Position numbers and translations under genes: made by a program. Below the pieces are notes generated by a model. It worked only from the letters and a program-made list of their open reading frames with translations, was not told where the DNA came from and ran no database searches. From the NCBI GenBank assembly GCA_034231615.1, contig CM067311.1, positions 15,347,360 to 15,411,359 on the forward strand: 64,000 bases of DNA, written 5' to 3'. Shown here piece after piece: positions 7,690 through 63,430 of the stretch. The number at the start of each line of letters is the position of its first letter. The stretch's first letter is position 1. This DNA comes from Meghimatium bilineatum (taxonomy: Eukaryota; Mollusca; Gastropoda; Stylommatophora; Philomycidae).

Positions 7690-8220
7690 TTCTAAAAAAT
7701 TACAGAACTTCTGAAATGCACTTTGCGATTCACACAGTGGCTATTAATGGTGTCTGTAAAGGGTTTTTTTTCCTATCAGTTGAGAGGGACAGACAGTCAA
7801 TAAAAGAAGTTTTCGACTGTTTCTTTATGTTGAGAGCAGTGTCTACATCTACATAGATGTGAGCATTAAATGCGGGATTTATTTAGCTGTAATTTGAGAT
7901 AGTTTCGCCGCTATTAGTTCATTGTTTTTTTTTCCATTCTGATGAAGAATTTTAGTCGAAACGTCGTATGTCATTGTATCTCGTTGTTAGAACGGCGTTT
8001 TTACTGATAGTAACACTTTAATTTTCCTATTTCCATTCATATTCCCATTAGTTGTATTTGCCTGGAACAGATATTGTTTAGTTTTAGTTTGGTTTATTTA
8101 ATCCAAACATCTAAATAGCATGGTGAATCAGCGACATTATTCTACAGAGGAAATGTGTCAATATTCAATATATAGTTATAACCCTAAATATGAAAATACA
8201 TTACTGTTATTATTTTGCGA
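7690..8220. other. Non-coding; contains a hammerhead-like motif only
   Basis: Apart from the motif at 7939-7965 I see no gene. Sequence around that motif resembles the arms of the foldback elements at 13.8 and 18.4 kb (GATGAAG, CGAAACGTCG, then TCTCGTTGTTA-like sequence), so this is probably a relic end of the same Penelope-like family. Confidence 0.4.
7939..7965 (+). ncRNA. Hammerhead-ribozyme-like motif (copy 1, degenerate)
   Basis: CTGATGA, a 12-base spacer (AGAATTTTAGTC), then GAAACGTC, in the order of a type I hammerhead core with cleavage expected after GTC. The helix II side GAA/GTC no longer pairs well, so this copy is likely inactive. Confidence 0.4.
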
Positions 8221-8222
8221 GC

Positions 8223-8375
8223 AGTCTCAAAGTTCTGATTGTTAGGATGTTGTCCTGAGATCAGATTTCGTTGTTGTGGTTTACAACATGGTTGCGATAT
8301 CTCCGAATTTCACAAACTCTACCATGGTTTTTAGTCACTTTGATCTAGGCAGCCAACATCACCCCCCCCCCCCAA
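8223..8375 (-). mobile_element. Element X copy, minus, degraded
   Basis: The minus strand carries the core blocks GGAGATATCGCAACCATG, TGTAAACCACAAC and a flank with TTGGCTGCCTAGATC. A C-run at 8363-8373 marks the junction. Strongly diverged relative to the copy at 61738. Confidence 0.5.
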
Positions 8376-8658
8376 ACTTTATTAATTGCTTCTTAAGATA
8401 ATCATAGAAAACTACAATGTTGCTCATTTGTGCACCCCTTCATGCCCCTGCAACAGACGCGCTTGAATTATTTAGTATAAAAGAAAAGGGCATGGGAACA
8501 CATTGGAATTTATTAACTGATATTTCAGCTGTGTACAATGAACCGTATATCGGAAAATGTCCAGAGCAAGGCTAGTTCCAACGGGTAGCCGTTACCTCTA
8601 ATATATCTATGGAAAAGTTTTCGGATACAATCCCTGGAATATCTCCAACGGAGTTTAA

Positions 8659-8716
8659 TTGGAAATTATTGGAAATTATTGGAAATTATTGGAAATTATT
8701 GGAAATTATTGGAAAT
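8659..8716. repeat. 10-bp tandem repeat, about 6 copies
   Basis: Unit TTGGAAATTA repeated head to tail immediately upstream of a LINE fragment. Confidence 0.9.
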
Positions 8717-8739
8717 CACCAACGTCTACGTCATGGAGA

Positions 8740-9640
8740 CAGATACCAGGTTTCCTATAGCACGTTTCCTTAGGTTTGCCCAACTTCAAAAAGACATATC
8801 TCAGCAAATACGAGATATAACGCATATAATTGAAATTGTGTATGTGAATTTCGGGTCAGAACAATCATTGCAAGAATTAACAGCAAAGTTGGAAAAAGTT
8901 ATCTGCAAGTACGGAATGGAAATCAATACAGATAAGAGCAAAATCTTGGTAAACATCAGAGACACAGAAAACCAGACTAATATCGTGATGAATGGACATA
9001 AACTTGAGGAGGTGAATACCTTCAAATACCTAGGATCCAGTATATGCAGCGATGGTAAATGCAAAGCAGAACTAAAGGTAAGGCTGGAGATGGGTTTAGC
9101 GTCCTTGTCAAGGCTAACTGTGATTTGGAAAAGCAACATCAGTGTTGGAGTGAAAATCAAACTGTATAAGTCGCTAGTGCTTTCTGTTGTGTTGTATGGT
9201 TGTGAGAGTTGGACACTCACTGCGGACATGGAGAGAAGATTACAGGCTTTCGAGTTCAAATGATACAGACGAAATCTACGAATTTCCTATAGGGAACATA
9301 AGACCATTGTGTACGTAAGAAATAAAGTAGAGATGTGTGCAGGTGTTCAGGAGCCATTGCTTTCAATAGTGAAACGACGAAAACTAGCATGGTTCGGACA
9401 TGTATGCAGGCACGATTCCTTGTCAAAAACAATACTGCAGGGGATTGTCGAGGGTGGAAGAAGCAGAAGAGGACATATAAAGGCATGGACAGACAACATC
9501 CAGGAATGGACAGGGCAAGATATTGTTACACTCATCCGCATTGCTGTGGATAGAATTCGCTGGAGGACTCTGTGTGCTGATGCATCCAATGTGGTACCCC
9601 TACGACCCTGAAGGGTTACGGGTTTATTGATTGATGTGAA
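8740..9640 (+). pseudogene. LINE reverse transcriptase C-terminal fragment (family A)
   Basis: A single reading frame runs from 8679 to 9611, broken by one stop (TGA at 9261-9263). The second copy at 45.36 kb has TGC (cysteine) at this place, so one substitution caused the break. The protein contains a thumb segment (KYGMEINTDKSKILV), the FKYLGSSI box, and the conserved SVVLYGCESWTL and RRKLAWFGHVCRHD segments of LINE RT C-termini, ending ...VVPLRP. The 3' UTR is short: AAGGGTTACGGGTTTATTGA plus TTGAT repeats. The RT active site and endonuclease are missing through 5' truncation. Confidence 0.85.
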
Positions 9641-9889
9641 TTTAAAATTGTGTATATGAATTTGAAATTGTGCATGTGAATTTTAAATTGTATAGACCCT
9701 TCACTTTGATTTCCGGTCAAAATTGCGAGTGAGAATGTATGTGTTTTTCTCTGTCCGTTGAAATTGGATGTTCATCCTGAAAGCAACGGTAAACTACAGG
9801 ATTATAGTGCCAAGAAATTTTCTATGGGTGTGGTGAATAATAATTAACGTCAAAGAAGGCTGGTTTCTGAACACTATATTAAAGATAAA

Positions 9890-10110
9890 GCTAGGGTTTT
9901 TTTTGGTCACATTAAGAAGAAGGCAACGGGAGCAAAGGCCGCCCAAGACGCTGCTGGACAAAAGACATTCAAGAAGTCCTGCGCATGTCACTAAAAGAAG
10001 CAGGACAACTTGCTCAAGGCCGCGGAGAATTCAAGTGATCCAGAAGGAAGACTACGTTCTCGAAAGAATGTGTCACCTGATGATGATAGACCCTATGAAT
10101 TAAATGTTTC
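9890..10110 (+). pseudogene. LINE extreme C-terminal fragment
   Basis: In shifted frames the plus strand gives GRPPKTLLD-like sequence (visible as RPPKTLLDKRHS), LRMSLKEAGQLAQGRGEF and a terminal RMCHLMMIDPMN, the typical tail of a LINE polyprotein. At least two frameshifts. No RT core. Confidence 0.6.
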
Positions 10111-61486: not shown

Positions 61487-61737
61487 GTTCTGCTAAAGAA
61501 ATATCACATTAAAGAAGCTATTGGTTAATCTATGTTATTGTACTTCACGGCAAACCCACAATTCTACATCTCCCTGAGAAGATGTCAAAGAATATGCATG
61601 CTGATAGTCCCATGGCTAGCTAGCTGGATAAACACTCTTAATTCTACTCGATGTGTTCTCAGTTCTATTTATACCATAAATAATATTGAATTGCCGCCCA
61701 TGTGTTACCAAGGTCTGAGAAGAAAGTAAAGAACAGC

Positions 61738-61978
61738 AACATTGTTTACCTTTCATGCATGTTGTAAGAGGCGACTAAGGAGGTTATGGGATGGAGTTGG
61801 CTGTCCCATTCCATATAGGGTCAACATGACTCAAAGCTATGCTAAAGTCATATGTGTCAGACCGAAAGGCGCAGATATTGCATCATTGCTGTAAACCATG
61901 ACACAAGACATTCCGTTCTCTGGACTACATCCTGCTAATTTGGAGGAGTTTGAGAATGAACGAAGAAAAAGAAGATAA
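61738..61978 (+). mobile_element. Element X copy, near complete
   Basis: TTTCATGCATGTTGTAAGAG, GCGACTAAGGAGG, ATGGAGTTGGCTGTCCCATT, CGAAAGGCGCAGATATTGCA, CTGTAAACCATGACACAAGA, CTCTGGACTACATCCTGCTA, GGAGGAGTTTGAGAATGAAC and a GAAGAAAAAGAAG tail. The cleanest copy in the window. Confidence 0.88.
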
Positions 61979-61979
61979 T

Positions 61980-62475
61980 GAATTGCCTTGGATGCAGCAT
62001 GGATACCTCCTGGATACCTCATCTATCCCATTGTCCACTCCAGCAAGTGACCACAAACTTCAGTACATCACCAGTGTTTATCTTAAATTCACAGATACAA
62101 GTCTGTCTGTTCTCTTATTACTACGAATATCAGCACACCCAGGCAATAGATCAATGTGATATCCAGAAGTTTAGAAATAGTTATAGTTTTGACAATGGAT
62201 GTTCTGAATATTTTGTTTATTTGCATATTGTCAAAAGGAGCAGCTATCACAGACAAGTTGTAAACCATGAAGCATTAAAGACTTATAGTATTGATTTTAA
62301 CCCCAAACATCATAATTGAAGCAATTATTCTGTATTTCCCATTGTGCTCCATGAGAACTCTCAATATCAATAGTTATAATAAACTCCAAGCCAGATTTTT
62401 CTCATATTTCCAGATAAATCAAAAATCACGGGACTTACCAGTTCAACAAATAACATCTCGGTAAATAACCAAATA
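61980..62475. other. No recognisable gene or element
   Basis: A 113-codon plus ORF (61978-62319) shows no domain and starts inside the Element X tail; not called. Confidence 0.4.
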
Positions 62476-62479
62476 CTGG

Positions 62480-63115
62480 AAAAAGTTTCAACTTTAATTA
62501 CTTGGGTAGCCAAATTTTTGTTGATGGAGACTCAATGAAAGAAATAAATACATGCATAGCAGTTGCAGCTAGCACATTTACCAAACTAATATCTGAAAGT
62601 CAAAAGATCTAGGAAGAAACACCAAGCTAAAGCTATTCAACTCCTATATTGTCTCAGTATTAACATATGAAAGAGAAAGCTGGAAATCAATTCACAGATC
62701 AAAAATTAAACAGCTTCGAAAACAAATGTCTCCGGAAACTTATGAACATAAAATGGAGCGATTTCGTCACAAATAGTGATTTAAGAAAGAAAGCACACCA
62801 AGAATATGTTTCAAACGTCATAAGAAAACGCAGATGGAAATACCTCGGTTATGTTTTAAGACTAGATGAAAAGAGAATAAACCAACAAGCCCTTACATGG
62901 ACGCCTGAGGGTAAAATAAAACGAGAAAGGAGTAAAGTAAACCTAAAAAACACCATGCTTAAAGAAGGGGAAATAACAGGCTGCAGGACCATACAAGAAC
63001 TAAAACTGCAGGCAGCGGACCGCAACACATGGAGAATCAAAACCTCTGTCCTATGTGCCGACTGTGGTATGAAAGGAACATATTTCTCACCACCATGGAG
63101 AGATCTATCTGGGAA
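62480..63115 (+). pseudogene. LINE RT C-terminal fragment (family C-like)
   Basis: Shifted frames: FNYLGSQIFVDGDSMKEINT then FENKCLRKLMNIKWSDFVTN, RKRRWKYLGYVLRLDEKRIN, QQALTWTPEGKIKRERSK and VNLKNTMLKEGE, ending near SVLCADCGMKGT. Parallel to 10640-11137 but from a distinct element. The single frame 62667-63155 covers most of it; the segment before is frameshifted. No catalytic core. Confidence 0.85.
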
Positions 63116-63359
63116 CACAATATCATCCTTCCCGGCTTTATTTGATATCAGTTGATTCATTTAAAGGTCTGCTTTTCCATTGTTCCATTTTCTCCATTAT
63201 TTGTCAAGATTCTGTCTGTATTCATCAATCATGTATGTGTAGTACAACATTACCACACATGGATAAGATCGATAATATATACTGACTGCAGTAAAACTGA
63301 AATCCATCAGTCAAAGCTTGGAACAGCGCAATGAAGTTTGCTAATCACTGTAAACACAT

Positions 63360-63430
63360 ATAAAAACACACAAACTGATGTTTCAACCAAAAAGCCTTTA
63401 TCAAGACACACAGCAAAAAACCATGGGTAA
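63360..63430 (-). ncRNA. Hammerhead-ribozyme-like motif (copy 7, decayed)
   Basis: Minus strand at 63377-63405 reads CTTGATA, AAGGCTTTTTGGTT, GAAACATC. Both core strands carry changes. Context (AACACACAAACTGATGTTTC, CTTTATCAAGACACACAGCA) is like the other arms, so it marks another Penelope-like relic. Confidence 0.3.

What the first reader, a model, noticed from the sequence alone, without database searches (positions are those of the whole stretch)
7939..63405. Seven copies of a hammerhead-ribozyme-like core dispersed in the window
CTGATGA - short hairpin - GAAACGTC occurs at 7939-7965(+), 13278-13305(-), 13858-13885(+), 17060-17087(-), 18455-18483(+), 28227-28254(-) and 63377-63405(-). Copy 2 keeps every invariant core base with a 3-bp helix II. 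Minimal type I hammerheads with almost no helix III are established in Penelope-like elements and retrozymes of metazoans. The self-complementary ACGT in GAAACGTC would allow the dimer form. Weak point seen in the sequence: helix I has only the closing C-G plus scattered pairs.
Basis: partly seen in the sequence, partly recalled or inferred. Interest (0 to 1): 0.75.

Follow-up and report, generated by a model that had tools for sequence, protein, structure and literature searches.

The report
Decayed hammerhead-like motifs in animal repeats
Seven short stretches that look like the heart of a self-cutting RNA are real and related, but they sit in old, decayed copies of mobile elements, lack an essential helix, and are most likely dead remnants of a known kind.

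Summary
The seven sites exist and are related beyond chance: 60 simulated windows gave no site within 7 mismatches of the family core. Only 4 of 7 keep CTGATGA…GAAACGTC; 18455, 28227 and 63377 lack G8. They are not seven independent events: 13278/13858 and 17060/18455 are inverted arms of two repeat elements (86% and 77% identical); 7939 and 28227 are partial relatives; 63377 belongs to a second, older repeat that also flanks element A. Between lineages the core (75–93%) is kept better than the flanks (19–72%); between the arms of B it decayed like the flanks, in A less. Helix I is one contiguous pair in 7 of 7, no compact three-helix hammerhead fits, and in folded full-element transcripts each core of A and B pairs with the opposite arm. 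Rfam is silent but also misses clear phage hammerheads. Head-to-head inverted units around unrelated DNA match published Penelope pseudo-LTRs (PMC3846280, passages), yet no Penelope protein was found in 20 of 100 ORFs scanned. Best reading: dead pseudo-LTR-like remnants with a decayed minimal hammerhead core. The host genome could not be searched.

The parts
13278..13305 (-). Hammerhead-like core, best copy (invariant bases kept, helix II 4 bp, extra A after A9, helix I 1 contiguous bp)
13858..13885 (+). Hammerhead-like core in the opposite arm of element A; closing pair of helix II broken
13197..13435 (-). Left arm of inverted-repeat element A (pseudo-LTR-like unit, core near its outer 3' end)
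13727..13950 (+). Right arm of element A; by eye its similarity to element B's arm may extend inward to about 13612
17060..17087 (-). Hammerhead-like core, invariant bases kept, helix II 2 of 4 pairs
18455..18483 (+). Hammerhead-like core, G8 lost, insertion
16975..17383 (-). Left arm of inverted-repeat element B (BLAST match 16985-17383)
18158..18560 (+). Right arm of element B (BLAST match 18158-18548)
7939..7965 (+). Hammerhead-like core, invariant bases kept, helix II 3 of 4 pairs; partial relative, BLAST similarity to about 7990, weaker alignment beyond
28227..28254 (-). Diverged hammerhead-like core, G8 to A, helix II 2 of 4 pairs
63377..63405 (-). Diverged hammerhead-like core, G8 to A, helix II 4 of 4 pairs with wobbles; 3' flank resembles 14027-14134
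13985..14134 (+). Degraded copy of the 63377-type repeat (68% over 151 columns), with a degraded core at its start; lies just outside element A
13006..13102 (+). Two degraded 63377-type cores (13006, 13057), just outside the left end of element A

Best explanation
The motif is the decayed core of a minimal, helix-III-less type I hammerhead that sat near the 3' end of a repeat unit (arms of about 230-400 bp) of an old retroelement, most likely a Penelope-like pseudo-LTR. Shown: the copies are related; two pairs are head-to-head inverted arms around DNA with no detected match to each other; the core is the best-kept part between lineages; helix I is absent and three copies lack G8. Inferred: in the mobile ancestor the unit's RNA cleaved after GUC, perhaps as a dimer through the palindromic ACGU, to process the retroelement RNA; the inverted pairs arose at insertion, by self-priming as proposed for Penelope. 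The present copies are dead DNA and most probably do not cleave.
For: Relatedness beyond chance. Inverted arms 13197-13435/13727-13950 at 86% and 16985-17383/18158-18548 at 77%, inner 5' ends and outer 3' ends, i.e. head-to-head. A_L versus B_L: core 26/28, upstream 32/50, downstream 55/76; B_L versus B_R: core 23/29, upstream 39/47, downstream 58/76. The core window ties for the highest between-lineage identity in the alignment from column 200 on. Passages of PMC3846280: Penelope copies framed by inverted pLTRs of about 180-220 bp, most often head-to-head, in one case around a host gene, with or without target-site duplication. Passages of PMC7761336: thousands of dispersed minimal type I hammerheads without helix III in animal genomes, some in PLE pseudo-LTRs. 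An extra base after A9 is compatible with a hammerhead shape. Folded transcripts of A and B pair 27 of 28 and 27 of 28 (A), 26 of 28 and 26 of 29 (B) core bases with the other arm.
Against: No Penelope RT or GIY-YIG was found: 20 of the 100 ORFs of 85 aa or more were scanned with Pfam; above cut-off were only RVT_1, RNase H and SAM domains (that these RTs are non-LTR type is my recollection). Four short recalled motifs in six frames gave two matches, neither convincing. No significant target-site duplication: TGATAT at element A has a chance of 19% in random pairs, none at B. An ATG lies in 4 of 7 cores, but its frame stops at codon 5 in 3 and after 21 codons in 1, unlike the ORF start reported for the Anolis element. 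Between the arms of element A the core (27/28) is kept better than its flanks (44/50, 52/73), so 'decays like the flanks' holds for B only. Core conservation has an ascertainment bias, since sites were picked by their core. The aligned copies show no helix I, so the ancestor may not have been a hammerhead.
Confidence: 0.58

Rival explanations
1. The inverted-repeat elements are ordinary non-autonomous DNA transposons (MITE or foldback type) and the core is a conserved terminal motif, for example a protein-binding site, that resembles a hammerhead by chance.
For: Long inverted arms, interiors without a detected match to each other, no RT inside. No helix I in any copy. In copy 13278 the core folds as a plain hairpin in which GAUG pairs with CGUC.
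Against: Four of 7 cores keep the hammerhead invariant bases. The core is shared with the 63377-type repeat, for which no inverted arms were found in 62500-64000. No significant target-site duplication.
Confidence: 0.25
2. The copies are active minimal hammerheads of Penelope-like elements that cleave as dimers through ACGU.
For: Four copies keep the invariant bases and the palindromic ACGU; helix II is 4 bp in 13278. The Anolis PLE hammerhead was reported to cleave only with its protein (main text part of PMC11167929), so weak folding alone does not exclude activity.
Against: Helix I is one contiguous pair in 7 of 7; the core is sequestered by the opposite arm in A and B; nearest same-strand pair of the seven is 3.8 kb apart.
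Confidence: 0.1
3. The sites belong to a metazoan retrozyme, a non-autonomous element made of direct tandem repeats with canonical type I hammerheads that yields small RNA circles.
For: Arm length of about 230-400 bp is within the 170-400 nt given for retrozyme RNAs in the abstract of PMC7229834.
Against: No head-to-tail arrangement of the motif seen; no helix I, so no canonical hammerhead.
Confidence: 0.03

Closest known systems
Minimal type I hammerheads of Penelope-like elements (Cervera and de la Pena 2014; Lunse, Weinberg and Breaker 2017; neither paper is held, their content is recalled or taken from PMC7761336 passages)
   Same: CUGAUGA-hairpin-GAAAC-GUC core without a looped helix III, dispersed in non-coding animal DNA and in pseudo-LTR-like repeats
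   Different: Stem I, with which the Anolis PLE hammerhead is described (PMC11167929), is missing here; extra A after A9; 3 of 7 lack G8; no PLE protein found nearby
Inverted pseudo-LTRs of Penelope in Adineta vaga (PMC3846280, passages)
   Same: Head-to-head inverted units, with or without target-site duplication; other DNA can lie between them
   Different: Arms here reach about 400 bp; no tail, ORF or significant target-site duplication recognised
Metazoan retrozymes (PMC7229834, passages)
   Same: Small repeat units with a type I hammerhead-like core
   Different: No direct tandem repeats, no canonical hammerhead
Phage hammerhead shapes of IMG/VR found here as controls (L020, L052 and others)
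   Same: CTGATGA followed by one unpaired base, helix II, GAAACGT
   Different: They have helix I of 4-6 bp and helix III of 4-11 bp; the window copies have neither

Membership tests
Hammerhead ribozyme (type I) | Invariant core CUGANGA ... GAAA ... UH | tested here: met
   Met in 4 of 7 copies, not in 18455, 28227, 63377
Hammerhead ribozyme (type I) | Helix II between A9 and G12 | tested here: inconclusive
   Four of four pairs in 2 of 7 copies, fewer in 5; an extra base precedes it
Hammerhead ribozyme (type I) | Helix I flanking the core and the cleavage site | tested here: not met
   One contiguous pair in 7 of 7 copies; 0 descriptor matches with helix I of 3 bp or more and a short helix III
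Hammerhead ribozyme (type I) | Covariance-model match | tested here: inconclusive
   Rfam: 0 matches at gathering, no hammerhead among 9 matches at E up to 10; but Rfam also missed 9 of 9 control sites in the 12 loci given and 4 of 4 at E up to 1 (two loci shared). Own model R1: 7939 at 15.5 bits (E 0.008), 13278 at 10.7 (E 0.36), five copies not listed up to E 10, an unrelated site at 14.1. In the 54 control loci not used to build it: 22 matches, 11 of them at 32-78 bits, several being near-copies of the training set
Hammerhead ribozyme (type I) | Self-cleavage after GUC | not testable with these tools
   Needs in vitro transcription
Penelope-like element | ORF with RT and GIY-YIG endonuclease | tested here: inconclusive
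   None in 20 of 100 ORFs of 85 aa or more scanned, nor by short recalled motifs; 80 ORFs and shorter frames were not scanned, and a non-autonomous copy would have none
Penelope-like element | Pseudo-LTR arrangement, direct or inverted | tested here: inconclusive
   Head-to-head inverted arms in two elements; the same geometry fits a terminal-inverted-repeat transposon
Metazoan retrozyme | Head-to-tail tandem repeats with canonical hammerhead | tested here: not met

The most novel reading that the evidence does not exclude
A family of inverted-repeat (foldback or DNA-transposon-like) elements carries a hammerhead core in each arm, on opposite strands, so that either strand's transcript could cleave only while the arms are not paired: hammerheads outside retroelements, with helix I supplied in trans or by a protein.
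Probability: 0.06. Interest if true: 0.55.

Novelty: new member of a known kind. Interest (0 to 1): 0.2.

Why it matters
If the reading holds, it is one more ordinary record of how the ribozyme cores of mobile elements outlive the elements as scattered fossils. It also warns that counting core motifs overstates the number of ribozymes, and that an Rfam miss is not proof of absence for hammerheads with an extra base after A9.

Tried and rejected
Retrozyme reading: rejected, no head-to-tail copies seen. Target-site duplication as proof of insertion: TGATAT at element A rejected as chance-level. An AC-rich 3' stem-loop like the Anolis reverse-transcription start site (PMC11167929): a stem-loop is visible in 13858 and 18455, but none of six copies folds clearly better than its shuffles (z from -0.95 to 1.18); dropped. 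Degraded copies at 13006 and 13057: as motif scores (13.5 and 17.9) they lie within the null maximum of 21.7 in 30 simulated windows, but their similarity to the 63377 repeat makes them likely relatives; they are not counted among the seven. IMG/VR scan for the family core: 5 stretches; prokaryote genome scan: 12 stretches; 0 of these 17 loci meet the descriptor with helix I of 4 bp and helix II of 3. Rfam negatives as refutation: rejected because of the failed positive controls. Rows dropped before counts: of the 20 rows of the control list I left out L036 (helix III of 1 bp) and the second L054 site (no extra base), giving 18 loci. Model R1 was built from 14 of these 18, leaving out L044, L056, L068 and L072 as near-copies; one search covered the 54 of 68 loci not used to build it. 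Literature: a search for hammerheads with terminal inverted repeats listed 3 papers, of which I saw passages of one (PMC6431247); I make no claim that such elements are unreported.
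Full report
Observation. All seven sites are present at the stated places. The exact core pattern occurs four times and not once in 100 shuffles. The other three are altered, each without G8. The core of copy 13278 is matched with 5 mismatches of 28 by 28227 and 63377; 60 second-order Markov windows had no site with 7 or fewer. In that ungapped count 18455 (8) and 7939 (10) are not significant; they carry indels and are tied in by their flanks. So the motif is real, but it is a set of related repeats and not seven independent inventions.

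Anatomy. BLAST of 800-base flanks within the window and repeat finding show that 13278(-) and 13858(+) lie in inverted arms 13197-13435 and 13727-13950 (86% identity), and 17060(-) and 18455(+) in inverted arms 16985-17383 and 18158-18548 (77%). In each arm the core reads outward and lies near the outer end. The interiors (291 and 774 bases) gave no BLAST match to each other at E up to 1e-4; by eye part of A's interior next to its right arm may still resemble B's arm. The copies at 7939 and 28227 share the core and, more weakly, the 3' end of the unit. 63377 shares with those arms little more than the core (36 bases, 83%), but its 3' flank matches 14027-14134 just outside element A, 68% over 151 columns when the degraded core at about 13985 is included; shorter matches lie at 13011-13102 on the other side of A. 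So a second, older repeat with the same core surrounds element A, in one orientation.

Hammerhead test. Helix II in copy 13278 is GGCU-UUUU-AGUC, preceded by an extra A after A9; over the seven copies it is complete in two. Helix I has one contiguous pair in all seven, with scattered pairs beyond. A descriptor asking for helix I and helix II of 3 bp or more and a short helix III finds none; with any helix I it finds one, copy 13278, against a mean of 0.15 and a maximum of 1 in 20 simulated windows, so this alone is not significant. The same call lists for copy 13278 one alternative with a 3-bp helix I, but only with a one-pair helix III and a cleavage site further downstream; I give it no weight. 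Rfam finds no hammerhead.

Control. To learn whether the extra base and the Rfam silence matter, I scanned IMG/VR for CTGAWGAWG...CCGAAACGT (68 loci). In 18 of 68 the site has helix I of 4-6 bp, helix II of 4-8 and helix III of 4-11; several are near-copies of each other. The pattern fixed the extra base, so this shows that it is compatible with a hammerhead shape and not how common it is. Rfam at gathering named none of the 9 such sites in the 12 loci given; its one hammerhead hit, in L029, is at another place. At E up to 1 it named none of 4. A model R1 built from 14 of the sites lists 7939 at 15.5 bits (E 0.008) and 13278 at 10.7 bits (E 0.36) in the window, with an unrelated site at 14.1 bits and another at 11.2 between them, and no other copy up to E 10. 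In the 54 control loci not used for the model it gave 22 matches up to E 0.1: 11 at 32-78 bits, of which several are near-copies of the training set, and 11 at 15-22. So the window copies show at best a trace of the shape. R1 expects helix III, so it is not a fair model of helix-III-less hammerheads; no such eukaryotic set could be fetched here.

History. Between lineages the core is kept better than the flanks (core 75-93%, flanks 19-72%; 63377 not in this alignment). Between the two arms of element B it is not (23/29 against 39/47 and 58/76); between the arms of element A it is (27/28 against 44/50 and 52/73). This is roughly what a motif that mattered while the element moved, and drifts now, would leave. 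The caveat is that the sites were chosen by their core. Folding the whole elements pairs 27 of 28 and 27 of 28 core bases (A) and 26 of 28 and 26 of 29 (B) with the opposite arm, so a read-through transcript would hide both cores.

Identity. Passages of PMC3846280 describe Penelope copies framed by inverted pLTRs, most often head-to-head, once around a host gene. Passages of PMC7761336 and PMC7229834 describe minimal hammerheads without helix III in PLEs and dispersed in animal genomes; PMC11167929 (passages, and the second part of its main text) reports an Anolis PLE hammerhead that cleaves only with its protein. Passages of PMC6155905 say that all PLE sequences then available carried such motifs; a passage of PMC8969392 mentions inverted pLTRs. 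Against membership, I found no PLE protein: Pfam scans of 20 of the 100 ORFs gave, above cut-off, only RVT_1, RNase H and SAM domains. A DNA-transposon reading of the inverted arms stays open.

Verdict. Real, related, mostly explained by a known kind; the ribozyme is very probably dead. The host genome could not be searched, which is the main limit of this report. That the host is an animal is an inference from the window's content.

Noticed in passing
L020, L022, L029, L038, L039, L041, L044, L048, L049, L052, L054, L056, L060, L068, L072, L074, L075, L081: IMG/VR contigs with well-formed hammerhead shapes that carry one unpaired base between A9 and helix II (CTGATGA-T-GG...CCGAAACGT); Rfam 15 named none of those tested (9, 4, two loci shared).
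   Followed up: partly
window 13006-13102 and 13985-14134 (+), 63266-63405 (-): A second, older repeat with a degraded form of the same core lies on both sides of element A and at 63377; element A may have inserted into it.
   Followed up: partly
window 6083-7676, 1417-2343, 2902-3884, 21588-22781, 30591-31318, 46547-47264: Long tandem arrays of 20-41 bp units, up to 61 copies.
   Followed up: no
window 51022-54925 and 57329-58822: Retrotransposon with an RT ORF (RVT_1) and, by eye, a second, nearly identical copy of its 3' part a few kb away.
   Followed up: no
window 41631-42140 (-): ORF with a SAM domain (PF00536, E 5.5e-14), possibly an exon of a host gene.
   Followed up: no
L011 5798-5826 (-): A bacterial locus (Zavarzinia marina) with CTGATGAAGGCGTTCAACGCCGAAACGT, helix II of 5 bp after an extra A, but no helix I of 4 bp; probably chance.
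   Followed up: partly
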